Source: Pectobacterium polaris
Lineage (GTDB): Bacteria > Pseudomonadota > Gammaproteobacteria > Enterobacterales > Enterobacteriaceae
Assembly: GCF_002307355.1 (NCBI RefSeq)
Contig: NZ_CP017481.1
Location: 682,001 to 746,000 of the forward strand
Reading direction: 5' to 3'
DNA length: 64,000 bases
Shown here: piece after piece, positions 17,168-34,501 of the stretch
Position numbering within the stretch: the stretch's first letter is position 1
Layout of the letters: every line of letters starts with the position of its first letter
Notes under the pieces: model-generated
The model's input: the letters and a program-made list of their open reading frames with translations, nothing else
Told to the model about the DNA's origin: nothing
Databases searched by the model: none
Translations under genes and position numbers: made by a program

Positions 17168-17613
17168 TCTCTTTCTCCAAAGGCGTAATAGCGCCGACGA
17201 TGCTATTGTTCAGAAACATACGAATTACTGACAGTCGTTTCTGGTATACATTCTAGGCAAAATTGTTACAAAGCATATTAAAATTCGTGTAATCAATCAT
17301 TTCCTGTGCTCTCAGGCATGAAATGATCGGCGATTAATGGCGATTGCGGTTAGCGAGAATTGTCGTTTACGAAGATTATAGTAACGCCGCCGCCAATAAA
17401 AAGGCGCGCTGGCAGCAAAAGCGGGAGAAAAGCGAGCAGAGAAGACGTTGCCGCCGGCATTTCACGTTCGACATATCGACATTTTCAGAGGGAAGCAGGA
17501 AAGGGCGTAAGAGCAATCTGGTAGGTCATACTTCAAACACGTTCTACCTCCTACTCCTGACGTAACGGTCTCGTGTCGCTCCGGCATAGGTACCGGAGCC
17601 GACGGTGAGTGAC
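17168..17613. other. Spacer between ompR and the siderophore-like operon (446 bp)
   Basis: Holds the ompR promoter (minus strand) in its first ~130 bases and the end of the siderophore operon at the other side. A 73-codon plus-strand frame at 17344-17565 has no family features and is not called. A 7-bp inverted repeat GCTCCGG / CCGGAGC at 17578-17599 lies just after the last gene of the operon. Confidence 0.5.
17578..17599 (-). terminator. Candidate terminator hairpin of the siderophore-like operon
   Basis: Perfect 7-bp arms GCTCCGG and CCGGAGC with an 8-base loop lie 15 bases past the stop of the final gene. No T-run follows on the minus strand, so intrinsic termination is uncertain. Confidence 0.4.
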
Positions 17614-18774
17614 TTACTGCGCAAGACTGACGAAATAACCCGGCTGGTAATCAACCGGCAGGAACTGCTGGTGAAGCTGGCGGAAGGTGTCATCCGCGTT
17701 GAGATCGCGGAATAAGTCCGGGTGGAACCACTCGGCCAGTTGCTGAATGGCGATAAAGTCATACGGGCCGTTGTAAAACTGATGCCAGATGGCATGAAAT
17801 GCACGCTGCTGCTTGGCGATGCTGTTGGTGTAGGCCGGACGCCCCAGAAACCATTCGAGACGCTTGCGCCCTTCCGTCATATCCTGCCCCGGCCCCAGAC
17901 CAATCCAGCGTCCGCCGGGCACGAAGGCCTCAAAGTTGCCGCTGGTGATCACCACAATTTCTGGGTTTTCCACAATCACCTGTTCAGGGTGCATCTGCAT
18001 AAAAGTGCTCGGCGCATTCTTCGCCGCGACATTATCGCCACCGGCCAGTTGCACAAATTTCCCGAAGTTATCCGGGCCGAACGTCAGACAGCATTCATCG
18101 GTATAGCCACCCAATCGTTCAATGAACACACGTGGTGAACGCGTTTTTTTTGCCGCCAGCACATCGGAAACGCGCTTTAGCTGCGCCTCACGGAATGCGA
18201 GAAACGCTTCGGCACGTGCTTCCTGATTAAAAAGCTTGCCGAACAGACGCATCGTCGGCGCAGTGTTTTCCAGCGGGTGATAGCGAAAATCGACATACAC
18301 AATCGGAATGCCGACGCTGTCCAGTATCCGGTCGTAGCCCGCATCGACAATCGACCGCTGCGCCTCAATGTTCATGATGATGACGTCCGGCTTCAGCGAC
18401 ACCGCCTGCTCCACGTCAAACGTGCCCTTTTCCGTGCCGTCAAACGTCGGGATTTTCGTCAGTTGAGGAAAACGATCGCGATACTGGTGCCACGTTGCCG
18501 GATCCGACTGAATCAGATCGCGCTTCCAGGCGACAATCCTTTTCGCCGGATCTTCGCGATCGAGCATCGCAACCAGATACAGCTGACGCCCCTCTCCCAA
18601 CATGACGCGCTGCACTGGCGTGTTGACTCTCACCTCGCGCCCCAACACGTCCTTGATGACAGTGGAGGTTTGCGCGGTTTGCTCAGCCTGCCCCACCAGC
18701 GGCGACAGGCCGACCATCAACAGCGCACTCAGCAATAACCGACGGCAATGTTGCCGCGTCCAACGATTACACAT
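17614..18774 (-). CDS. FecB/FepB-type iron-siderophore binding protein
   Basis: Periplasmic binding protein of about 386 residues, the last gene of the seven-gene island. An N-terminal signal peptide is present (about residues 1-30, basic MCNRWTRQHCRR then LLLSALLMVGLSPLVG, ending near QAEQ). The mature part has the class III binding-protein features DVLGREVRVNTPVQRVMLGEGRQLYL and PDVIIMNIEAQ. The start at 18774 gives an 8-base overlap with the MFS gene; an earlier ATG at 18807 would overlap it by 41 bases. It probably carries a ferri-siderophore across the periplasm. No cognate ABC permease or ATPase lies nearby, so it must use a transporter encoded elsewhere. The ligand is not shown by the sequence. 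Confidence 0.85.
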   Translation of the reverse strand: MCNRWTRQHCRRLLLSALLMVGLSPLVGQAEQTAQTSTVIKDVLGREVRVNTPVQRVMLGEGRQLYLVAMLDREDPAKRIVAWKRDLIQSDPATWHQYRDRFPQLTKIPTFDGTEKGTFDVEQAVSLKPDVIIMNIEAQRSIVDAGYDRILDSVGIPIVYVDFRYHPLENTAPTMRLFGKLFNQEARAEAFLAFREAQLKRVSDVLAAKKTRSPRVFIERLGGYTDECCLTFGPDNFGKFVQLAGGDNVAAKNAPSTFMQMHPEQVIVENPEIVVITSGNFEAFVPGGRWIGLGPGQDMTEGRKRLEWFLGRPAYTNSIAKQQRAFHAIWHQFYNGPYDFIAIQQLAEWFHPDLFRDLNADDTFRQLHQQFLPVDYQPGYFVSLAQ

Positions 18775-20017
18775 TTTCAATATTTCCCTTCGTCGAGAGA
18801 GAGTCATGTTTTTCCGCCTGTATCCGCAGGCGTCGTAGCAGCATCAGCGAGACCAGAAAGGTCACCAGATACGCGGCACCAACGCAGAAGAACAGCGAAC
18901 GTAGTCCAGGGGAGTAGAGAACCCATCCCCCCAAAGAAATGCCCAGAATAGAGGCAAACTGGCTGACGCTTTGCGCCACGCCGAGTATGTAACCCTGCTG
19001 CCCAGCCCCCGCCGCACGGGAAATCAGCGCCATCAGAACGGGCGTTGTCGCCCCCAGCAGCACGCCCCACAGGAAATAAAGCGGAATGAAAATCGCAATA
19101 TTCAGGATTGTGGCGGCCGTCAATGTCACGATGGCGCAGGCCAGCATCACCACACACAGGCGGCTCAGCGTTTGCGACAACGAGAGGTTTTCAAAATAGC
19201 GCGCCCACAGCGACGCAGAGACAATCACGCCGGTCGCCTGCAAGCCATAACACAGCCCGATAACCCACTTATCCACCTGAAAGACGCCGTCCAGATAGAG
19301 GGAAAACGGCGTCTGCGGGATCATGCGGCTGCTCAGCAGCAGGCCAGAAATCAGCAGCAAACCGGGAATCGGCGACAGCGCCCAGAGCCGCCGGCGGGGA
19401 ATTGCTTTCGCCTGCGCGTCCGCAGGCGGAGCAACGGGAACCTCGGGGGCGACATGCGGCAGAAACAGCGCCACGGTAATGCCGCACAGCGCGCAGAGGA
19501 TCGCCGCACTCAGGTTGATCCAGAAGAAGTTCAGGTAATCTAGGATCAGCCCGCCGACAATCGCTCCCAGCAGCGATCCCACATTGGTAGATACCTGAAG
19601 CCAGGCGAACAGCCGTGTGCGCTGTAGCGGACTGACCACCGCGACGCCATACGCCTGCGCGGGCGCAATATAGCCCGCACAGGCACCCTGAATAAAACGC
19701 AGCACGACTATCGTCCAGATGTCGTTTGCCCACGCCAGCCCAAGCTGGGTTAACGCCAGCCCAAACAGCGCGCGGATCATCATGGCTTTGTTGCCCAGCC
19801 GATCGCCCATCCGTCCCCAGAAGGCGCTGGTCAGCATAATACCCAGCATCGGCCCGACGTACACGGCAATCCCCGCGATACTCAGTTCCGCACCAGATGA
19901 CATACTTTCCAGATGCAGCGGCCAAAACGGCCCGCTCATCTCCATCGCGCCCATCGCGACCAGCTGTACGACAAACATAAAGTGGATGATGAACGCGACC
20001 TGTCCGCTCAAGCGCAT
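18767..20017 (-). CDS. MFS transporter, probable siderophore exporter
   Basis: Major facilitator superfamily protein of 416 residues with about 12 predicted membrane helices and a central cytoplasmic loop (about residues 195-220, APPADAQAKAIPRRR). The loop between helices 2 and 3 has the MFS motif GRMGDRLGNKAMM. In NIS siderophore clusters such as sbn, pvs and fsl, the MFS gene usually exports the finished siderophore, and that role is inferred here. An AAGGAG lies seven bases before the ATG. It is 60 bases downstream of the opine-dehydrogenase-like gene and overlaps the binding-protein gene by eight bases. Confidence 0.85.
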   Translation of the reverse strand: MRLSGQVAFIIHFMFVVQLVAMGAMEMSGPFWPLHLESMSSGAELSIAGIAVYVGPMLGIMLTSAFWGRMGDRLGNKAMMIRALFGLALTQLGLAWANDIWTIVVLRFIQGACAGYIAPAQAYGVAVVSPLQRTRLFAWLQVSTNVGSLLGAIVGGLILDYLNFFWINLSAAILCALCGITVALFLPHVAPEVPVAPPADAQAKAIPRRRLWALSPIPGLLLISGLLLSSRMIPQTPFSLYLDGVFQVDKWVIGLCYGLQATGVIVSASLWARYFENLSLSQTLSRLCVVMLACAIVTLTAATILNIAIFIPLYFLWGVLLGATTPVLMALISRAAGAGQQGYILGVAQSVSQFASILGISLGGWVLYSPGLRSLFFCVGAAYLVTFLVSLMLLRRLRIQAEKHDSLSTKGNIENV

Positions 20018-20077
20018 GCGTCAGCTCCTTCTGATTCCACGGCGTCACCCGGCCTCATTCCCGCTACGGTCATCACG

Positions 20078-21247
20078 TCAATTCATCTCATCCGTCAGCC
20101 AGTACGGCGGGAAGTAGTCGGGGCGATCCTGCGTGGAGGTTCCCATGTAATCGCTGCACCACCGGTAGACTTCCTCAATGTACGGCACGCTAACGGCCAG
20201 ATTCTCCGCAATCGTCACCAGCAGGCTCAGGCCGTAGGCAATATCCTCCTGAAACACCCGATGCTGCGTATCAAACACGTACCCGCCAGCGTCATGCTTT
20301 TGCAACGGCAAACCGATGCCGTGATAAGCCTGATTGGTGCGCAGCACGGAGAGCATCGTGTGCGCATCAGCAATCTGATCGCCATAGGCATCGATAATCT
20401 CCTGCTTGAGCGGCAGCACGGAATCCAGCCGCACGCCAAGCCGCGTCTCCAGCGCCGCGCACAGCTGCTGGTTCTCTTCATCCATGCGTTCCAGATAATA
20501 GGCACCGAGTTCCGGACAATCATTCCACCAGCATAGCGGCTGCGAGAGTGGTCGGGCATGCCACTGCCCGTAGGGACCGATCAGGCCATAAATCACCGCA
20601 CTGTGCATAATCGGGTTACCCGGCGTAAGTGTGATTTCCAGATAATCCGGCAATAGCACCACGGGCGCAGAATAGAGCCGTTGCAGCAATGCCATCAGCG
20701 CCTGCTGGCTCGCAGCCGTTTCACGCCGGTGCGTGGCGACATACAGCATGGCCTTTTCGCCGCCCATTTTGATCGACTGGCCCGGTAGCAAATCAAACGC
20801 AATGTGCGCGACGTCCTTCATTCCCCAAATCACCGCGTTTGGGCGAGCGGCTAATTCACGTTCAGCCAACCAGTCAAAACCGCAAAAACCGGGAATTGCA
20901 CCGACATAAACCGGTTTATCGGCAGGCAGATGGGGAACGATCCGCGCCAGAAGGTCGGCGCGGAAGTTGGCGGGAACGGTGATGATAACGACATCCGCAT
21001 CGCGGCAGGCTTCCGCCGGATCACAGGTCACGCAGTCCGGCGTGGCCGTCAGCGTCTCGCCATCCGGCAGCAATGCGTGTAGCCGTTTACCGTGCTGCTG
21101 ATAGGTTTCCGGCAGACGAGGATGGCTGCCCAGCAGCGTCACCTTGACGTCCGGCCGTTGTTTAAACAGCACCGTGGTGAGATGGCCGGTCTTACCGGCC
21201 CCGCAAATCACCACGTTAAGCGGCTGCCCGCTTAGCGTTTCGATCAT
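20078..21247 (-). CDS. Octopine/nopaline dehydrogenase-family oxidoreductase
   Basis: NAD(P)-dependent enzyme of 389 residues. The Rossmann motif GAGKTG is at residues 16-21. The C-terminal half is the alpha-helical octopine-dehydrogenase domain and contains the GNPIMHSAV segment, where opine dehydrogenases keep an Asn and the catalytic His. Family members condense an amino acid with a 2-keto acid or run the reverse reaction. The gene starts 10 bases after an SbnA-like gene. SbnA makes N-(1-amino-1-carboxy-2-ethyl)-glutamate, which SbnB oxidises to 2,3-diaminopropionate and 2-oxoglutarate. No SbnB (ornithine-cyclodeaminase fold) is present here, so I infer that this enzyme does that step. It could instead make an opine-type metallophore. 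Confidence 0.85.
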   Translation of the reverse strand: MIETLSGQPLNVVICGAGKTGHLTTVLFKQRPDVKVTLLGSHPRLPETYQQHGKRLHALLPDGETLTATPDCVTCDPAEACRDADVVIITVPANFRADLLARIVPHLPADKPVYVGAIPGFCGFDWLAERELAARPNAVIWGMKDVAHIAFDLLPGQSIKMGGEKAMLYVATHRRETAASQQALMALLQRLYSAPVVLLPDYLEITLTPGNPIMHSAVIYGLIGPYGQWHARPLSQPLCWWNDCPELGAYYLERMDEENQQLCAALETRLGVRLDSVLPLKQEIIDAYGDQIADAHTMLSVLRTNQAYHGIGLPLQKHDAGGYVFDTQHRVFQEDIAYGLSLLVTIAENLAVSVPYIEEVYRWCSDYMGTSTQDRPDYFPPYWLTDEMN

Positions 21248-21257
21248 CCTTGACTCC

Positions 21258-22274
21258 TTAGCTTGCCTGCTCCAGAGAGATCGCGTTACCCAGCCAGCGA
21301 TCCAGATCGTGCCACACGCCGCTATCTATCAGGTTACGCGCCGCCAGCCACTCTTCGTTAAACACCGTGTGCAGGTATTTCTCCCCGCCGTCGGCAATCG
21401 CCAGCACAACGTTGCCGCCGATACGATCCTGATAGATCAGCTCCAGTGCCTTATAGATCACCCCGCCCGTCGAGCCGCCGACCAGCAGACCGTAGTGCCG
21501 TGCGATATAGCGTGCCGTTTCAAATGCCTGCGTATCCGAAACCTGCTCGCCACAGTCGATGCAGCTGTAATCCAGCACCAGCCCTACGGTATCCCCCGCT
21601 GGTGTCCCCGTGCCGGACTGATAGTAAGGCTTGCCGGGGTGGCCAAAGACGATAGAGCCCACCGGTTCAACGGCAATGGTCGTGATATCTGGGTTATGGA
21701 CTTTCAGACCGTGCGAAATACCGGTCATCGATCCGCCGGTGCCCACGCAGCCAACAAACGCGTCGATCTTGCCAATCTGGCTGAACAGCTCGCGGACAAA
21801 ATCGGCATAGCCGCCCGCATTCGCCGCGTTGTCCGACTGGTTCATAAACACCGCGCCGGGTATTTCCTGCGCCAGCTGTGCCGCCATACGCTGGCGTTCC
21901 ACCACCGCCACCTCATCTTCGCCGTAGTCGCCGGAGACATAGCGAATTTCCGCGCCGAGCGCGCGCATGATGGCAATTTTGTCCTGTGCCGCGTGGTGAT
22001 CGACCACGGCGATAAAGCGCAGGCCGTATTCAATCGACGCTAGCGCCAGCCCGATACCGGTATTCCCCGATGACGACTCGACAATGGTGCCGCCGGGGCG
22101 GATTTTGCCTGACTTCAGCCCGGCGACAATCATATTTCGCGCCATGCGATCCTTCATGCTGCCGCCGGGGTTGTTCTTCTCCACTTTTAAAAATAAACGC
22201 GTATCCCCATAGGGAACCGGGATTTGTATAACGGGCGTATTACCAATCAAATCAGTTACTTTATTCAGGATCAT
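21258..22274 (-). CDS. SbnA-like PLP enzyme (diaminopropionate precursor synthase)
   Basis: Fold-II PLP enzyme of 338 residues related to cysteine synthase. The lysine for PLP is Lys41 in NPGGSMKDR, which matches SbnA rather than the NPxxSVKDR of CysK. The SSGNTG phosphate loop, a GSIVFG segment and the LVGGSTGGVI loop also match SbnA. SbnA joins O-phosphoserine and glutamate to give the opine-like precursor of 2,3-diaminopropionate for staphyloferrin B. The ATG at 22274 has GGAG eight bases upstream and lies 13 bases after the decarboxylase stop. An ordinary cysteine synthase is the alternative, but the motifs and operon argue against it. Confidence 0.85.
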   Translation of the reverse strand: MILNKVTDLIGNTPVIQIPVPYGDTRLFLKVEKNNPGGSMKDRMARNMIVAGLKSGKIRPGGTIVESSSGNTGIGLALASIEYGLRFIAVVDHHAAQDKIAIMRALGAEIRYVSGDYGEDEVAVVERQRMAAQLAQEIPGAVFMNQSDNAANAGGYADFVRELFSQIGKIDAFVGCVGTGGSMTGISHGLKVHNPDITTIAVEPVGSIVFGHPGKPYYQSGTGTPAGDTVGLVLDYSCIDCGEQVSDTQAFETARYIARHYGLLVGGSTGGVIYKALELIYQDRIGGNVVLAIADGGEKYLHTVFNEEWLAARNLIDSGVWHDLDRWLGNAISLEQAS

Positions 22275-22287
22275 GGTTCTGCTCCAT

Positions 22288-23691
22288 TCAGTTATCACTG
22301 GAAAAAATCAGCTCACCTTTCTTACCTTTAAACGCACACAGGCGCGCAGGCAGCGGATGCCGATGAAACGCGTTTTCCAGCAGGTCCATCTGGTATCCCG
22401 CCGTATTCGCGTAAATCAGTAAGTCGCCAGGCTGCGGCACGGTTCGAAAATGAATCAATCGGTTCGTAATGACATCGTCGTCCAGACAGCTGTGTCCGGC
22501 GATCCAGGCTTTGCCCGGCACCAGAGGCGTGTCTTTTTTGACGGAAAAAACATGCAGAGGATCAATCAAAAACTCAGAGTTAAACCAGGTTTCGCACGCA
22601 CTGAAGCTGCTGCCTTCCACAAACACGACGTGGTTGCCATCCGGCTGGCGGCGCGTACGCGTGACGCGAAACACGGTAATCGCACTTTGGTCAGCGAGGC
22701 TGCGTCCCGGCTCAATCGCCAGAATCAGGCCGTACTGCTTGAGCACGTCCGCTACGCGATCCTGTCCAATTGAGGCGGACAGGAATGCCTCAAGATAGTC
22801 AGCTGCCGAGCGCTCACCGCCATACGGGTAAAACGAGGTCGGTACCTGACCGTGGCGGTAATCCGCCCCATTCTGCTGCGCTAAATAATCCTGATAGCGT
22901 GAAGCCGGAAGATATTGAATCGGCAATCCCCCGCCGATATCCATAATCGCGGGCTCTAATCCCTTTGACCTTGCCCGCTCCAGCAACGGCAGCACCTCAG
23001 CGAATGCCGCCACGCGGGTATCGGGCTCATAGCCGCCTAGATGGAAATGGAAACCTTCCAGATGAAGTGCATCCTGTCTGGTACTCAACGTTTCCAGACA
23101 GCGTGCGACCTCATCAGCAAGCATGCCAAACCGGCTGGCCTGAGCGAACGACGGGCGATAGCGCAGCAGAACCCGCACGGGCTCCGTTACGCGCAGCAAA
23201 TCCGCCAGCGCGAGCACCTCATCGAACTCTTCCGGCGAATCCAGCACGATAAGGGCGCGATGATGAACCAGCGCCGTCAGGAACTCGCGCGTTTTGGCCG
23301 GGCCTGTGGCGCACAGCCGCGCGCCGTCACAGCCTGCCCGCAGCGCATCTTTCAGCTCCTGTAAGCTGGAAACATCCACGCCGACGCCCGCGTTAACCGC
23401 CGCCTGAACTAAACCCGGCGACTTGTTCACCTTCGCGCCGTAGTACAGGCGGCAGTCCACGTCGTGACGCTGCAACACTGTCCGCAATGCCGCAATATTG
23501 TTGGCCACGGTGTGCGGCCAGACAATATTCAGCGGTGACCCATACTGCTCAACCAACCATGACAACCTTTGCGGCGAGTTGAAAACAAACTGCTCAATCT
23601 CACTATCCAGATAAGGCGTCAGTCTCTCAGGCCAGTGGGCCTGCGCGACAGGGAGGGAAGACACTGCGGCAAAGCTAAACAGGTTGCTCAT
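22288..23691 (-). CDS. Fold-III PLP decarboxylase (DapDC/ornithine decarboxylase type)
   Basis: PLP-dependent decarboxylase of 467 residues with an alanine-racemase-like barrel. The Schiff-base lysine is Lys87 in YYGAKVNKS. HLGG, the phosphate-binding GGGLP and EPGRSL motifs follow, then the subunit-crossing Cys motif SCLDDD. In NIS siderophore operons, homologues (SbnH, FslC, PvsE) decarboxylate a diamino acid or its citryl conjugate. It is therefore unlikely to be the housekeeping LysA. An AAGGAG precedes the ATG by six bases. The substrate cannot be read from sequence: citryl-diaminopropionate or free diaminopropionate is the inferred choice. Confidence 0.88.
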   Translation of the reverse strand: MSNLFSFAAVSSLPVAQAHWPERLTPYLDSEIEQFVFNSPQRLSWLVEQYGSPLNIVWPHTVANNIAALRTVLQRHDVDCRLYYGAKVNKSPGLVQAAVNAGVGVDVSSLQELKDALRAGCDGARLCATGPAKTREFLTALVHHRALIVLDSPEEFDEVLALADLLRVTEPVRVLLRYRPSFAQASRFGMLADEVARCLETLSTRQDALHLEGFHFHLGGYEPDTRVAAFAEVLPLLERARSKGLEPAIMDIGGGLPIQYLPASRYQDYLAQQNGADYRHGQVPTSFYPYGGERSAADYLEAFLSASIGQDRVADVLKQYGLILAIEPGRSLADQSAITVFRVTRTRRQPDGNHVVFVEGSSFSACETWFNSEFLIDPLHVFSVKKDTPLVPGKAWIAGHSCLDDDVITNRLIHFRTVPQPGDLLIYANTAGYQMDLLENAFHRHPLPARLCAFKGKKGELIFSSDN

Positions 23692-23732
23692 CGCTATCTC
23701 CTTAACGTTCGGTTCCTGAAAAACACATATCC

Positions 23733-25928
23733 TTAGAAATCAACCGCGACGGACAGCATCAGCGTCCGCGGCGTTCCTTGCGATACCGTGCTGAACGATG
23801 TCACGCCAGACCAGTAATTGCGGTCAAAGGCGTTGAGTACATCGGCACGGAACGTGGTGGGCGCGTTATAGATTCGTGTCTTGTAACGCGCGCCGAAATC
23901 AACGGTGGTCCAGGAAGGAATTGACTGGGTATTGATGGTGTTGACGTTCTGCTTCCCGTTATGAGTAACGTTGGCGTTCAGCGTCAGATCGCGCAGGAAC
24001 GGCAGATCATATTCCACTCCGGCATTCGCCTGAAAACGCGACGTGCCCGGCGCGCGCTTGCCCTGCGCCCCCGGCGTCACGCTTTTGGTCAGCTCGGCAT
24101 CCAGCAGCATCACGCCGCCGGTCAGGCGCAGATCCTCCAGCGGTGAACCGACCACATCCAGCTCGATACCCCGATTGCGCTGCTCGTTAGCGGTAACGAA
24201 CTCACTACCCGTACCGTTAACCAGTGCGCCGCTCGGCTTGGTAATTTGGAAAATGCTCAGCGTGGAGATCGTCCCCAGCGCGTCCACTTTCACCCCAGCT
24301 TCGTACTGCTTGCTCTTATACGGCGCAAGCACCTGACCCGGATTACTCGCATTCGCAGGCGCAATATCGCCTTTGCTCAGCCCCTCAATGTAGTTGGCAT
24401 AGAGTGAGACGTGCTGCCAGGGCTTAACTACGACACCCACCATCGGCGTTATCGCATTTTTGTCGTAGGACGATGATGGCGCACTATTGCCGGGAACAAA
24501 GTTATCCGACTTGATCTGTTGATAACGTAGCCCGCCCGTGACTTGCAGCGCATCGTTCCAGAAGCCGAGCGTATCCGCCAATGCGATACCTGACAGCGCA
24601 GTGGAAGAGCGTTTATACACGCTTGGCGGTGCAGCGACATTCTGGGCAGGTGAAGAAACCGGATTGTAAATATTTGAGTTAATTGCTGTTCCGTTGCCGA
24701 TACCGGTCGCCTGACGATCGCGATAGTAGCTGGTCTGTGCCGACAGCTTGTGCGTCACCGAACCCGTTTCCACATCCGCGCGAACACCGGTCGCCAGCGT
24801 GTAGCGGCTGGTAGTAAAGCGATAATTCCCCACGGCGGAACTCACATCGCCATTGTTATTCGTGACCTGCGGCACCTGCTCCGACAGTCGGCTTACGTGT
24901 GCGCTGGAACCGCCCAAATCGGTAAACCAGGTGACGTTATCCGCCAGATCGTATTCGGTATGCAGCAGCACCGACTGGTCTTTGGAATGCCAGAATCCCC
25001 ACGGCTGGGAAATATTGTTATTGCCATCCGGTGCGTCAGGCACAGTCACACCAGGCGCAAACGAATAGGGCCGCGATGGCGCACGCGTTTTCAGGTGCTG
25101 AGTGATGAGATCCAGCGTGGCACGGAAGCGTTCTGACGAGAAATCCAGCCCGAGCGCACCGACCTGTGTACGTTTGTCGCTGCCATCCCACACCGTGTCG
25201 CCGTAGCCGTAATTGCCGTTAAAACGCACGCCGAGCAGATTGTTATTGTCCAGTGCATAGACGCGGGAAATATCCGCATGCTGTGTGAGTTGAGAATCAG
25301 ACTGCCAGCTGGTCGTGAGGCGGGTCAGATTGCCGACGGTGGTCGGGCGTTTGGTGACGGCGTTAATCACGCCCCCCACGCTGCTGTTAGGCGACAGCCC
25401 ATACAGCAGAGCCGACGGCCCTTTCAGCACTTCCACCCGCTCGATGTAGTCAGTCATCAGCTGGTAGTTGGGCGCAACACCGTAGACGCCGTTCATGGCG
25501 ATGTCGCTCAGGTTTCCTTCATTGAGTGGAAAACCGCGAATGTAGTAGGAATCCAGCAGACCGCCCTGAGAACTGCTCACCCGCACCGATGCGTCATGCG
25601 CAACCACCTGCCCCAGCGTCTGGGCCTGTTTATTTTCAATAAACGATGAGGTCATGTTGCTGACGTTAAACGGCGTATCCATCACGTCTTTTTTGCCCAG
25701 CAGCCCGGTGCTGGACGACCGCGCCGACATGCCGCCCGCGACCAGCCCCTGCACGGCTTCCGCGTCTTTAGCTTCCACCACGATCGTGGAATCATCGCGC
25801 TCGCCCGTTGCCGCCTGCGCGGGTATCGCGATGCCGCTTAGCACAGCCGTGACGGCGACGGCCAACACGGAGGGAATAGGAAAACGAGTCTTCCCGGTAG
25901 GTGGAGTGAAGTTCTTCCTGGCGTTCAT
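23733..25928 (-). CDS. TonB-dependent siderophore receptor
   Basis: Outer-membrane receptor of about 731 residues. The start at 25928 places a signal peptide at the N-terminus (MNARKNFTPPTGKTRF, hydrophobic core, cleavage after AQA). An in-frame ATG at 26006 would bury this signal, so it was not chosen; neither start has a strong SD. A candidate TonB box STIVVEA follows. The plug domain includes SYYIRGFPL and RVEVLKGPSALLYG. The 22-strand barrel ends in the aromatic-terminated strand MLSVAVDF. It belongs to the ferrichrome/ferric-carboxylate type of receptors. It lies 81 bases after the NIS synthetase and is expected to import the locally made ferri-siderophore. Confidence 0.93.
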   Translation of the reverse strand: MNARKNFTPPTGKTRFPIPSVLAVAVTAVLSGIAIPAQAATGERDDSTIVVEAKDAEAVQGLVAGGMSARSSSTGLLGKKDVMDTPFNVSNMTSSFIENKQAQTLGQVVAHDASVRVSSSQGGLLDSYYIRGFPLNEGNLSDIAMNGVYGVAPNYQLMTDYIERVEVLKGPSALLYGLSPNSSVGGVINAVTKRPTTVGNLTRLTTSWQSDSQLTQHADISRVYALDNNNLLGVRFNGNYGYGDTVWDGSDKRTQVGALGLDFSSERFRATLDLITQHLKTRAPSRPYSFAPGVTVPDAPDGNNNISQPWGFWHSKDQSVLLHTEYDLADNVTWFTDLGGSSAHVSRLSEQVPQVTNNNGDVSSAVGNYRFTTSRYTLATGVRADVETGSVTHKLSAQTSYYRDRQATGIGNGTAINSNIYNPVSSPAQNVAAPPSVYKRSSTALSGIALADTLGFWNDALQVTGGLRYQQIKSDNFVPGNSAPSSSYDKNAITPMVGVVVKPWQHVSLYANYIEGLSKGDIAPANASNPGQVLAPYKSKQYEAGVKVDALGTISTLSIFQITKPSGALVNGTGSEFVTANEQRNRGIELDVVGSPLEDLRLTGGVMLLDAELTKSVTPGAQGKRAPGTSRFQANAGVEYDLPFLRDLTLNANVTHNGKQNVNTINTQSIPSWTTVDFGARYKTRIYNAPTTFRADVLNAFDRNYWSGVTSFSTVSQGTPRTLMLSVAVDF

Positions 25929-26009
25929 CAACAAAGTTATCCATCTCAAAATGAGGAGTGAAAAAGATGCTCCCGTTTTCAGCCTGTGAGGCGGGAGCAT
26001 CGCCATACA

Positions 26010-27911
26010 TCACGATCCGATGCGGGTTTCTCCCCCTTCCGTGAGGAAGGGATTGCTCAGACCGTGCTGAATCCGGTAGTCGCGATATTCCTGGATGTGC
26101 ATGCGCAGCAGCGAACGCGTATACCAGGGCTGGGTCAAAAACATGTCGCGTTCGGTCTGCCACAGCTCGCCATCAACGCGCGGCTTCACCGCGTCAAACG
26201 CCGCGGCAGTTTCTTCTTTCATCACCTGCCACAGCCGGGCATCGGCAAAGCCGTATTCCGCGCTGAGCGCCAGCGCCAGTTCGTGCAGGTGGCTGACAAA
26301 GCAGGCATCGACGACAAACATCCGCACCGGCTCGATGTCGTCTTCAAATACCGTGGGCAGAATGCCGGGCCAGACGTAGGGTTGCAGATGATGACCACGC
26401 TGACGCAGCAGCGGTGCATAGGTGCGCCCGTCGCCGAAATCACGGATTAATAATCCCTGCGCGACACCTTCCAGTGAAAAGAGGATCTGGCTGTTCTGCT
26501 GATGCGCTTCCAGCCCGATGCCATACAGCAGATAGATAGCGATAACAGGTCGGGTTACAGCGCGGACGTATTGACGGAACCACGCTTCGGGGCCAAGCCC
26601 GGACAGCGTCACCAGCTCGGAGAACAGCGGCTGGTTGCGGTGAGGCAGCGCCGTAAACAGCGTCGCGACGGTCACGGGCAGCGCGCCGTCGGTGCGTTCA
26701 TAAATTCGAGCATCGCGGAACACGACGGAGAGGTGTTTTCCCGGCGCGTCATCCTGATGAATCGCGTGCTTGTAGTGGAACGCCGTCTCTTCGCGGAAAA
26801 ACTCCAGCCGCTGCTCAAACCCACCTTCCTGCGCCAGAATCGCTGCGATAATGGTGCTGATACGTGGCCCCATGTGGATGGATTTCGCCTGTAGGCTGCG
26901 CATTTCGCTGGTCATCCAGATGGCGACGGGCAGTTTGATGAAAGGGGAAGAAGGTGGTTCAACGGGCAAAACGGTACGGAACGACATACCCGGCAGCGTG
27001 ATGAGATCGGGGCCATCGGTAAGCAGAATCCCTTCGGCAATTTCATCCGCGTAGTGGGATTTCACCCAGTTTTCCAGATGCCAGCTGTGAATGGGCAGCG
27101 GGAGCCACTGCTTCTCATCCAGCCCTTGTTGATTCAGGCGCTGCTTCCAGTCCTGCCAGAGCGCGGGGAATGCCTGAGCAAACCACGCATGAAAATCATC
27201 GACGTGCGGCATGGATTCTACATACGCCATGTCGCGGCGCAGTGCGGTAATACGCAGCGGCACGCGGGCGTTAAATTCGGGTGACAGCTGCTGGACGTCT
27301 TGGTCACTCAGGCCGGGGCGGGATTTCCAGGTCGGATAATAAGGGTGGCCTTCCAGCGATCCCCACTGGTCGAGAAACATGGCGGCATCGCGAATGCTTA
27401 GCTGCCGACGCAGCCACGGCGTGAAAGCGTCCTGCCCATCTTGCTGCATGGCATCAGCCACTTCAGCACGCCACTGGCACCGATAGCGCCGGGCGTTGGT
27501 ATCATTACGAATGCTGTTACCGACGTCTTTTTTCAGGCCACTGATGCCGCTCTCGTCAGGCTGAAAATCGAAATTGTCGCGAAGTAAATCAATCAATCGC
27601 TCGTGGCTGGTGACGGGAAAAGACGTCCCATCTGAATGAATGAGATAAATATTTCCATTATTAATATAGGTGTTTGCTGGTGCGGGGGAAATATCATCAA
27701 ATTTCAATATACCTTTGCCACCCTGCAAAATTAGCGTTGCTTCTCTGGAATTACCCTTAATAAACCTCAGGTCATTTTTATTCAAAATCCCTTCAGCGAA
27801 AAAGCAGCGAACCAATCGCCTTAGCGCATTTTTATTTGAATAATCAGAGAGAAAATCATCTACATCCTGATGTATATCCCTGTGTTTAACATCGTCAGCC
27901 TTGATATTCAT
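26010..27911 (-). CDS. NIS siderophore synthetase (IucA/IucC family)
   Basis: NRPS-independent siderophore synthetase of about 633 residues, the first gene of the island. It adenylates a carboxylate, usually citrate, and condenses it with an amine or alcohol. Family features are LPIHSWHLENWV (the substrate/ATP-binding segment) and the KLPVAIWMTSEMRSLQAKSIHMGPRIST block, followed by the FhuF-like C-terminal domain ending in SLLRMHIQEYRDYR. The ATG at 27911 has GGAG five bases upstream; the GTG at 27917 is less likely. Only one synthetase is present, as in the rhizoferrin (fslA) and legiobactin systems, so the product is probably a simple mono- or bis-citryl compound. A Fur-like box lies 160 bases upstream. 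Confidence 0.92.
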   Translation of the reverse strand: MNIKADDVKHRDIHQDVDDFLSDYSNKNALRRLVRCFFAEGILNKNDLRFIKGNSREATLILQGGKGILKFDDISPAPANTYINNGNIYLIHSDGTSFPVTSHERLIDLLRDNFDFQPDESGISGLKKDVGNSIRNDTNARRYRCQWRAEVADAMQQDGQDAFTPWLRRQLSIRDAAMFLDQWGSLEGHPYYPTWKSRPGLSDQDVQQLSPEFNARVPLRITALRRDMAYVESMPHVDDFHAWFAQAFPALWQDWKQRLNQQGLDEKQWLPLPIHSWHLENWVKSHYADEIAEGILLTDGPDLITLPGMSFRTVLPVEPPSSPFIKLPVAIWMTSEMRSLQAKSIHMGPRISTIIAAILAQEGGFEQRLEFFREETAFHYKHAIHQDDAPGKHLSVVFRDARIYERTDGALPVTVATLFTALPHRNQPLFSELVTLSGLGPEAWFRQYVRAVTRPVIAIYLLYGIGLEAHQQNSQILFSLEGVAQGLLIRDFGDGRTYAPLLRQRGHHLQPYVWPGILPTVFEDDIEPVRMFVVDACFVSHLHELALALSAEYGFADARLWQVMKEETAAAFDAVKPRVDGELWQTERDMFLTQPWYTRSLLRMHIQEYRDYRIQHGLSNPFLTEGGETRIGS

Positions 27912-27978
27912 AACCACTCCTCATACCGATAAAACAAGTAAAAACCGATTGCAGTAACGTATAAAAGGGCGTCATTAG

Positions 27979-28161: not shown

Positions 28162-28720
28162 ATGGGACACGCTAAAACCTATCTCTTTATGCCTGGTAAT
28201 GCGCCCCACCGCTTTCAACAAGCCGTCTGCTGGGGTTCCGATGCCGTGATAGTTGATTGAGAAGATGCTGTTCATCCTGATGAAAAAACCAGGCCAGAGA
28301 GAATATTATCCAGTGGAATAAAAATGACACGCCCGTCTCTGAAATAAATTGCAAAAGATATATACATTTAAACAAACTTGGTTAAATGGAATTCAGTGAA
28401 GATATTGAGTTTCTGAATAGACTCAATAATAAAGATAAATTAAGAAATAGCGAAAAATACAAACATAAAATAGTCACATGGGGAATTGTATTACCTAAAA
28501 TAGAATCCAAAGAAATGCTGAATGACACGCGGGAGATGATAAATCGTAATAGATTAGAAAACGTGAACATTATTGCGATTATTGAAACCGCGCGGGGTTG
28601 CATCATGCGGAAGAGATTTGTGCAGCAGGCATTCGCGACGGACCTTAGCAAAATAGAAATGACTAAGCCCGTTGCGCCGATAGCTCGCAAAAGAGGGATA
28701 TTATTCCTCAATAAAAGTGC
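28162..28720 (+). pseudogene. Decayed CitE-like (HpcH/HpaI aldolase family) gene
   Basis: The remnant opens MGHAKTYLFMPGNAPHRF and continues GSDAVIVD-stop-EDAVHPDEK, the start of a citrate lyase beta subunit-like protein in which a Leu codon has become TGA (28258-28260). After further frame changes, a second stretch at 28386-28597 reads GIVLPKIESKEM and NIIAIIETARG, family motifs. A one-base shift at about 28597 then restores LHHAEEICAAGIR before another stop. At least two stops and two shifts rule out function. The rest of the gene is missing. HpcH/HpaI-fold enzymes recur in NIS siderophore clusters (SbnG, AcsB), so it may be a lost part of the neighbouring system. Confidence 0.8.
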
Positions 28721-33214: not shown

Positions 33215-34501
33215 TCAGTCTTTCAGCGCGGAAACATAGTCCCGACGCGGCTGTCCGGTATAAACCTGGCGCGGACGGTAGATGCTGATTTCATCCTGCT
33301 TATGCATCTCATCCCAATGCGCAATCCAGCCGATCGTTCTGCCGACGGTGGAAATAACCGTAAACATTGACGGCGGCAGCCCCATCGCTTTGAGAATGAC
33401 CGATGTATAGAAATCGACGCTTGGGTAGAGTTTATTCTCCAGAAAATAGGCGTCAGTCATGGCGATGTGTTCCAGCTCCATCGCCACCTGCAATAGACTA
33501 TCTTCCGTGCCGAGTTCATTGAGCACTTCATAACAGGTTTTACGAAGAATCGCCGCGCGTGGGTCGAAATGCTGGTAGACCGAGTTACCGAATCCCATCA
33601 GGCGGAATGAATCGCAGCGGTCTTTCGCGCGTCGTACAAATTCAGGGACGCGATCGACCGTTTTAATCTCTTCCAGCATGCGCATACAGGCTTCGTTCGC
33701 CCCACCGTGCAGCGGCCCCCACATCGATGCCAGCCCAGCAGCAATGCAGGCAAACGGGTTCGCGCCGGAGGAACCTGATGCTCTGACCGCCATCGTAGAC
33801 GGGCACTGACCATGATCGGCATGCAGAATCAGGATGCGGTTCATCGCTCGTTCCAGCACCGGATTCACTTCATATTTCTCCGCCGGAATCGAAAACAGCA
33901 TGTGCAGGAAGTTACCGGTATAGGAGAGCGAATTACGGGGATACACGGACGGCTGTTCGATGGAATATTTGTAGCACATCGCCGCCAGCGTCGGCATTTT
34001 CGACAACAGCCGCACGGCCGCCAGCTCGCGGTGCTCCGCGTTATGAATATCCAATACATCGTGATAGAACGCGGCTAGCGCACCGACCACCGCGCACATC
34101 AGCGCCATCGGGTGGGAATCGCGACGAAAACCACTGAACATGCGGGAAATTTGCTCATGAACCAGCGTATGGCGGGTGATGTTGTCGGCAAATTTCGCAT
34201 ACGCTTCCGCCGAAGGCGCTTCGCCATGCAGCAGGATGTAACAGACCTCAGTAAAGTCACACTGTTCGGCGAGCTGTTCGACAGGGAAGCCCCGATGCAG
34301 CAACACGCTATTCACCGCATCAATATAGGTAATCGCCGACTCGCACCCTGCCGTATTGGCAAAACCGGGGTCATAGCTGCACAGCCCGTGCTCAGCGAGT
34401 GGGCGAATATCCACCGCCGTTTTCCCCAGTACGCCGGAACGCATATCCAGCGTGATATCCGCCTGCCCTTCTGCCGTCAACGTGGACGTTCTGACTGTCA
34501 T
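33215..34501 (-). CDS. Citrate synthase paralogue with substituted active-site His
   Basis: Type II (hexameric GltA-like) citrate synthase of 428 residues. It keeps the HADH motif, the catalytic His in [10 protein letters not shown], Asp in SVDFYT, and the oxaloacetate Arg residues ([19 protein letters not shown]). At residue 306, however, the usual GFGHRVY reads GFGNSVY: the catalytic His (His305 or 306 in E. coli GltA, depending on counting of Met) is Asn, coded by AAC at 33584-33586. This His polarises the oxaloacetate carbonyl. The enzyme may be weak, changed in substrate, or non-catalytic. The gene stands alone, not beside sdh, so it is probably not the main gltA. It is divergent from tex. 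Confidence 0.85.

What the first reader, a model, noticed from the sequence alone, without database searches (positions are those of the whole stretch)
17614..27911. Siderophore-like operon pairing an SbnA homologue with an opine dehydrogenase
Seven codirectional genes: NIS synthetase, TonB receptor, fold-III decarboxylase, SbnA-like PLP enzyme, octopine-dehydrogenase-family enzyme, MFS exporter, binding protein. In staphyloferrin B, SbnA makes an opine-like adduct of serine and glutamate, and SbnB (a different fold) oxidises it to 2,3-diaminopropionate. Here no SbnB is present and an opine dehydrogenase is in its place. An opine dehydrogenase running in reverse would be the natural tool for that step. 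With only one NIS synthetase and one decarboxylase, the product may be a small citrate-diamine siderophore. I know of no such described pathway, though I could not search.
Basis: partly seen in the sequence, partly recalled or inferred. Interest (0 to 1): 0.88.

Follow-up and report, generated by a model that had tools for sequence, protein, structure and literature searches.

The report
Rhizobactin-type iron-scavenger operon
This seven-gene cluster in a Pectobacterium-type bacterium belongs to a widespread operon family that is also present in known makers of rhizobactin, an iron-scavenging molecule, so it is predicted to make rhizobactin, with the opine dehydrogenase likely adding a pyruvate-derived arm rather than standing in for SbnB.

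Summary
In detail: seven intact codirectional genes (NIS synthetase, TonB receptor, LysA-type decarboxylase, SbnA-like enzyme, octopine-dehydrogenase-family enzyme, MFS, binding protein) and no SbnB in the locus. The interpretation (dehydrogenase in reverse, free diaminopropionate, citrate-diamine product, undescribed pathway) is mostly not supported. All four biosynthetic genes recur together in 79 of 80 related loci, and the set matches the proteobactin (pbt) operon of Proteus, whose Pectobacterium homologues are already noted in print. It occurs in Pseudomonas sp. FEN, whose rhizobactin and rhizobactin B were identified by MS/NMR and whose only NIS synthetase lies in this operon; in Caballeronia mineralivorans PML1(12), published as a rhizobactin producer, again with one NIS; and in S. 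meliloti, the original producer's species. Rhizobactin (malate, lysine, ethylenediamine, alanine) fits one bond per enzyme, with the dehydrogenase running forward on pyruvate (inferred). New here: the operon's 'hypothetical protein' is predicted to fold like the free serine kinases SerK/SbnI; a RipC/CitE-like neighbour tracks citramalate-bearing rhizobactin B; in the window both are broken or lost while the core is intact, predicting malyl rhizobactin. No product was measured.

The parts
26010..27917 (-). NIS synthetase (IucA/IucC family), predicted to form the malyl amide on lysine N6
   Evidence: PF04183 188.2 bits and PF06276 116.9 bits; best NCBIfam FslA 274.6 bits, cut-off 1000; only IucA_IucC gene of the genome
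23733..26006 (-). TonB-dependent siderophore receptor
   Evidence: TIGR01783 333.2 bits, above its cut-off of 223.5; PF00593 and PF07715
22288..23691 (-). PLP decarboxylase, LysA-like (called Y4yA family in annotated relatives), predicted to remove the serine-derived carboxylate
   Evidence: PF02784 81.1 bits; lysA 112 bits, below cut-off; relatives annotated 'Y4yA family PLP-dependent enzyme'
21258..22298 (-). SbnA-like PLP beta-replacement enzyme, predicted to join O-phosphoserine to the alpha amine of lysine
   Evidence: PF00291 221.7 bits; best NCBIfam SbnA 237.5 bits, cut-off 349.95; SbnA chain 5d87 E 9.2e-40, behind cystathionine beta-synthase at E 1.6e-48
20078..21247 (-). Octopine-dehydrogenase-family enzyme, predicted to condense the aminoethyl amine with pyruvate
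   Evidence: PF02317 106.4 bits; octopine dehydrogenase 3c7a E 1.8e-21; H215, R330, D335 align with H212, R324, D329 of 3c7a and are invariant in 75 of 75 sequences
18767..20017 (-). MFS exporter
   Evidence: PF07690 155.1 bits; best NCBIfam rhizoferrin exporter FslB 173.8 bits, cut-off 600
17614..18807 (-). Periplasmic iron-siderophore binding protein
   Evidence: PF01497 46.4 bits; ferrichrome/ferrioxamine B binding protein model 219.1 bits, cut-off 374
28162..28673 (+). Remnant of the divergent RipC/CitE-like gene: pieces matching about residues 1-158 of the P. carotovorum homologue in more than one frame with stops, and a weak piece (E 0.008) of residues 227-257; the rest is missing
   Evidence: tblastn of intact homologues, best piece 78% over 105 residues, E 1.3e-63; same place found in the whole-genome search with stops inside
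17457..17540 (-). Short remnant of the start of the SerK/SbnI-like gene; the gene is otherwise gone
   Evidence: Judged by eye: the frame 17376-17516 (-) reads FLLPSENVDMSNVKC (DNA) against FLLPSENVDMSNVEC in P. carotovorum L003. No tblastn hit here and none in the genome

Best explanation
The seven genes form an NIS siderophore operon of the rhizobactin/proteobactin family, which is predicted to build rhizobactin, with the opine dehydrogenase likely running forward to attach pyruvate and not in reverse to free diaminopropionate. Inferred steps, order not known: (1) the SbnA-like enzyme replaces the phosphate of O-phosphoserine with the alpha amine of L-lysine; (2) the LysA-type decarboxylase removes the serine-derived carboxylate, leaving N2-(2-aminoethyl)-lysine; (3) the opine dehydrogenase condenses the new primary amine with pyruvate and reduces it with NAD(P)H, giving the N-(1-carboxyethyl) arm; (4) the NIS synthetase joins malate to the N6 amine. 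The adduct is kept rather than split, so SbnB has no job. The MFS would export the product; receptor and binding protein would bring the iron complex back. In relatives a SerK/SbnI-like kinase would supply O-phosphoserine and a RipC/CitE-like enzyme would supply citramalate for rhizobactin B. Here both are broken or lost (shown), so O-phosphoserine and malate would have to come from central metabolism and the expected product is malyl rhizobactin.
Against: No enzyme or product was assayed here. The link to rhizobactin rests on other species at 46-76% identity outside the enterobacteria. The PML1(12) paper was not readable here, and the locus held for that strain starts inside the dehydrogenase, so its decarboxylase and SbnA-like gene were not seen. 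The FEN authors pointed to rhbAB homologues, not to this operon. FEN, PML1(12) and S. americanum have OCD-family genes elsewhere (3, 4 and 6 matches). The NIS scores best against a citrate-using model, FslA. The SbnA-like enzyme scores below the SbnA cut-off. Two accessory genes are broken or lost in this genome. No clear Fur box was found.
Confidence: 0.82

Rival explanations
1. One reading: the SbnA-like enzyme makes the Ser-Glu adduct, the opine dehydrogenase oxidises it in reverse to diaminopropionate and 2-oxoglutarate, and one NIS plus the decarboxylase make a citrate-diamine siderophore.
For: SbnA is the best NCBIfam model for the PLP enzyme; no SbnB in the locus; a serine-kinase-like gene like SbnI occurs in relatives; the NIS is nearest the citrate-using FslA model.
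Against: The same four enzymes are present in FEN, whose characterised siderophores contain lysine, an ethylenediamine unit, alanine and malate or citramalate, not citrate. The dehydrogenase would be left without a role in making the alanine arm.
Confidence: 0.06
2. Same logic, different parts: the operon makes a rhizobactin relative in which the NIS uses citrate or another acid, or in which another diamino acid replaces lysine.
For: NIS identity to FEN is only about 60%; best model is FslA; FEN itself makes two products differing in the acid.
Against: The gene set and the single NIS are conserved across distant producers, and all three taxa with known products make rhizobactin-type compounds.
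Confidence: 0.1
3. The operon is decaying in this lineage and makes little or nothing; not exclusive of the rhizobactin reading.
For: The RipC/CitE-like gene is broken and the SerK-like gene lost in G000, G012 and G019 of 25 genus genomes. Elsewhere in the genus the dehydrogenase is split (G018) or a scrap (G027), and it has no match in 7 of 25.
Against: All seven core frames are intact here. The dehydrogenase is intact in G000, G012 and G019 alike, and P. brasiliense L011 keeps all seven core genes full length with the same accessory losses. The SerK-like gene is not found in 8 of 80 loci, Budvicia among them, and the RipC/CitE-like gene has no match in 42 of 80, so neither is essential to the family.
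Confidence: 0.15

Closest known systems
Rhizobactin operon of Pseudomonas sp. FEN and of Caballeronia mineralivorans PML1(12) (Blanco Nouche et al. 2023, title seen only)
   Same: Same NIS, MFS, binding protein and dehydrogenase families; FEN also has decarboxylase, SbnA-like enzyme and receptor; one NIS per genome
   Different: Gene order differs (NIS after the dehydrogenase); both have an intact SerK-like gene and FEN an intact RipC/CitE-like gene, broken or lost here
Proteobactin operon pbtA-I of Proteus mirabilis (Himpsl et al. 2010, seen through a 2024 review)
   Same: Same seven core genes in the same order
   Different: Proteus keeps pbtI (citrate-lyase-beta-like, i.e. the RipC/CitE-like gene), the 'hypothetical protein' position is filled by the SerK-like gene, and ABC genes lie alongside
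y4y/y4x cluster of S. fredii NGR234 pNGR234a and the S. meliloti AK83 plasmid operon
   Same: ParB-like (SerK-like), Y4yA decarboxylase, cysteine-synthase-family enzyme, opine dehydrogenase, IucA/IucC, MFS
   Different: No RipC/CitE-like gene in the stretches shown; different order; on plasmids
Staphyloferrin B (sbn)
   Same: SbnA-like enzyme, PLP decarboxylase, NIS chemistry; SbnI-like kinase in relatives
   Different: No SbnB, one NIS instead of three, no SbnG; the adduct is thought to be kept, not split
Rhizoferrin (fsl)
   Same: NIS, MFS exporter and decarboxylase families are the nearest named ones for two of the three proteins
   Different: All scores far below the curated cut-offs; no SbnA-like enzyme or dehydrogenase in that pathway (recalled)
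Opine metallophores (staphylopine, pseudopaline)
   Same: An opine dehydrogenase reductively joins an amine to a 2-oxo acid in a metallophore (recalled)
   Different: Those need a nicotianamine-synthase-like enzyme and no NIS synthetase (recalled); none of the seven proteins has such a Pfam match

Membership tests
Rhizobactin-type NIS operon | One IucA/IucC NIS synthetase | tested here: met
   PF04183 188.2 bits; only one in the genome
Rhizobactin-type NIS operon | SbnA-like PLP enzyme and LysA/Y4yA-type decarboxylase beside it | tested here: met
   homologues together with NIS and dehydrogenase in 79 of 80 loci
Rhizobactin-type NIS operon | Octopine-dehydrogenase-family enzyme with catalytic His/Arg/Asp | tested here: met
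   (75 of 75)
Rhizobactin-type NIS operon | Export and uptake genes (MFS, TonB receptor, binding protein) | tested here: met
Rhizobactin-type NIS operon | Product is rhizobactin or rhizobactin B | not testable with these tools
   needs MS of cultures
Rhizobactin-type NIS operon | Accessory SerK/SbnI-like kinase (found in 72 of 80 loci, so not strictly defining) | tested here: not met
   no match in the genome; short remnant only
Rhizobactin B variant (citramalate) | Intact RipC/CitE-like gene beside the operon (proposed here, not an established criterion) | tested here: not met
   broken remnant; a 29%-identical generic homologue elsewhere
Proteobactin operon | NIS, receptor, decarboxylase, PLP enzyme, opine dehydrogenase, MFS, binding protein, in that order | tested here: met
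   description
Staphyloferrin B (sbn) | SbnB (OCD/mu-crystallin family) in the locus | tested here: not met
   one family member, elsewhere on the chromosome
Staphyloferrin B (sbn) | Three NIS synthetases | tested here: not met
   one in the genome
Staphyloferrin B (sbn) | SbnA equivalog | tested here: not met
   237.5 bits, cut-off 349.95
Rhizoferrin (fsl) | FslA and FslC equivalogs | tested here: not met
   274.6 of 1000 and 25.8 of 500 bits
Opine metallophores | Nicotianamine-synthase-like enzyme in the operon | tested here: not met
   none among the Pfam matches of the seven proteins at E 0.001

The most novel reading that the evidence does not exclude
The RipC/CitE-like gene beside this operon family (PbtI in Proteus) is a dedicated citramalate maker (acetyl-CoA + pyruvate) that sets which siderophore is made: carriers make rhizobactin B, operons without it make rhizobactin. 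Proteobactin is then rhizobactin B, and the lineage of this window has switched chemotype by losing the citramalate enzyme together with the dedicated serine kinase.
Probability: 0.4. Interest if true: 0.55.

Novelty: new member of a known kind. Interest (0 to 1): 0.38.

Why it matters
It replaces a tempting but unlikely pathway with one tied to identified molecules, gives each enzyme one bond to make, and turns three open points into direct tests: what proteobactin is, where the citramalate of rhizobactin B comes from, and why the operon carries an SbnI-like 'hypothetical protein'. If right, it also shows an SbnA-type adduct that is kept and built upon instead of being split.

Tried and rejected
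Rejected: dehydrogenase as SbnB substitute (see rivals). Rejected: rhizoferrin or staphyloferrin B membership (scores below cut-offs; one NIS only). Rejected: the rhizobactin 1021 (rhb) genes as the source of rhizobactin B in FEN; the FEN paper pointed to rhbAB homologues, but FEN's only IucA/IucC gene lies in this operon.

Led nowhere: the Fur-box scan was inconclusive. The best site upstream of the window's synthetase has 12 of 19 matches and lies in the RipC/CitE-like remnant, while 46 sites in the 64 kb reach 12 or more. A Fur-like stretch is shared by the 6 aligned intergenic regions, but so is most of that region. Better sites (14-15 of 19) stand upstream of the synthetase in Proteus, Budvicia and Providencia. 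Paper searches for 'opine dehydrogenase'+SbnA+siderophore, rhizobactin+'opine dehydrogenase' and rhizobactin+Pseudomonas+octopine gave 0 papers; rhizobactin+SbnA gave 2 papers, not read; Pectobacterium+rhizobactin gave 7, not read. This does not show that the enzyme steps are unpublished: the key 2023 paper is not held.

Not followed: the role of the aminotransferase class V gene found in 27 of 80 loci. RipC/CitE-like genes outside the held flanks (up to 10 kb a side) were looked for in three genomes without one in the locus: PML1(12), S. americanum and Ensifer LCM 4579 (29-33% identity only). The NIS substrate (malate or citrate) was not tested by residue comparison or tree.
Full report
OBSERVATION. 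The genome has one NIS synthetase and one octopine-dehydrogenase-family gene, both here. One SbnB-superfamily gene exists elsewhere on the chromosome. I take the genome as Pectobacterium because the nearest dehydrogenases are from that genus (93-97% identity in eight loci).

HOW COMMON. A scan of one genome per species with the dehydrogenase gave 86 relatives, of which the best 80 were kept: Pectobacterium, Samsonia, Proteus, Providencia, Budvicia, Arsenophonus, 23 Pseudomonas, and beta- and alpha-proteobacteria including Rhizobium and Sinorhizobium. The query was the dehydrogenase, so its presence is by choice; the presence of the other genes is not. By tblastn all four biosynthetic genes lie together in 79 of 80; the exception, L067, starts inside the dehydrogenase at a contig end. 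All four are full length in single frames in 74 of 80; the six others are two contig ends (L037, L067), two with shortened genes (L007, L032) and two whose decarboxylase aligns over less than 85% (L069, L070).

WHAT IT MAKES. L030 is the genome of Pseudomonas sp. FEN. The FEN paper (PMC7676072; abstract, outline, passages and section 25 seen) identifies rhizobactin and, in larger amount, a new rhizobactin B by MS and NMR, gives the parts of rhizobactin as ethylenediamine, alanine, lysine and malic acid (citramalic acid in B), and leaves the biosynthesis open while pointing to rhbAB homologues. FEN has all seven homologues and only one IucA/IucC gene and one Octopine_DH gene, both in this locus. 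L067 is Caballeronia mineralivorans PML1(12). A 2023 paper, seen only as a title in reference lists (not held), names rhizobactin as its NIS siderophore; that genome also has one IucA/IucC gene, in this locus. I recall, but did not see, that its abstract reports targeted mutants. S. meliloti AK83 carries the complete operon on a plasmid, and S. meliloti DM4 is the first known producer. Seven further genomes, seven of seven, have one IucA/IucC gene each, at coordinates inside the locus.

MECHANISM. The parts list of rhizobactin maps one to one on the four enzymes: NIS for the malyl amide, SbnA-like enzyme for the bond between lysine's alpha amine and the serine carbon, decarboxylase to turn that serine unit into an aminoethyl group, opine dehydrogenase for the N-(1-carboxyethyl) group from pyruvate. 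These assignments and their order are inferred. The dehydrogenase keeps the His, Arg and Asp that align with H212, R324 and D329 of octopine dehydrogenase 3c7a (their roles are recalled), invariant in 75 of 75 sequences; this fits a working opine dehydrogenase but does not by itself fix the direction. If the adduct is kept, no SbnB is needed: Budvicia has the core genes and no OCD-family match, and P. mirabilis has only a marginal partial one (24.6 bits). FEN, PML1(12) and S. americanum do have OCD-family genes elsewhere (3, 4 and 6 matches), so for them the point is open.

THIS LINEAGE. In the window the RipC/CitE-like gene is a remnant (28162-28673), and the SerK-like gene is gone but for a short remnant seen by eye (about 17457-17540; no search hit). 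Among 25 genus genomes, the window's own included, the dehydrogenase is intact in 16, split in one, a scrap in one, and without a match in seven. The RipC/CitE-like gene is full length in 14 and the SerK-like gene in 13. G000, G012 and G019 share an intact dehydrogenase with a broken first and a missing second accessory gene; P. brasiliense L011 shows the same pattern with all seven core genes full length. The core seems to be kept; the expected product is malyl rhizobactin.

KNOWN OR NEW. A 2024 review (PMC11026637; passages seen) describes the P. mirabilis proteobactin operon after Himpsl et al. 2010 (not held) with this gene set, including the opine dehydrogenase, a citrate-lyase-beta-like gene on the other strand and a hypothetical protein, and says its closest synthetase homologues are in Pectobacterium. 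So the operon family is known, and rhizobactin is its likely product. antiSMASH 7 lists aminopolycarboxylic acid metallophores as a cluster type (passages). Within the searches, of which I opened only some hits, I did not come upon the link between proteobactin and rhizobactin, the kinase assignment, or the citramalate assignment; the library is partial, so they may be in print elsewhere.

Noticed in passing
window 33215-34501 (-): A citrate synthase (TIGR01798 645 bits, above cut-off) that reads GNSVY where I recall GHRVY in E. coli GltA (active-site His, recalled). Whether it is a second copy and whether it bears on iron was not checked.
   Followed up: partly
L030:13855-15519 and 26 other loci, mainly Pseudomonas: An aminotransferase class V gene (SufS/EgtE-like, below cut-offs) follows the MFS gene in many of these operons, in 27 of 80 loci; also in the Serratia plasmid. 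Role unknown.
   Followed up: partly
L007 (Pectobacterium sp. PL152); G018, G027 and G030: Signs of separate decay of the operon within the genus: shortened synthetase and receptor in L007, split dehydrogenase in G018 and a scrap of it in G027, split kinase-like gene in G030.
   Followed up: partly
L089, Serratia marcescens plasmid pE28_003: The operon with RipC/CitE-like, aminotransferase V and ParB-like genes sits on a plasmid record, with an IS903B-type element between receptor and decarboxylase.
   Followed up: no
L088, S. fredii NGR234 pNGR234a: The operon lies between nodulation-effector genes nopX and nopL on the symbiosis plasmid; NGR234 has a second dehydrogenase homologue on its megaplasmid (H24).
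   Followed up: no
L059, Bosea sp. Tri-44: The operon is split into two divergent blocks: dehydrogenase and NIS on one strand, the other five genes on the other.
   Followed up: no
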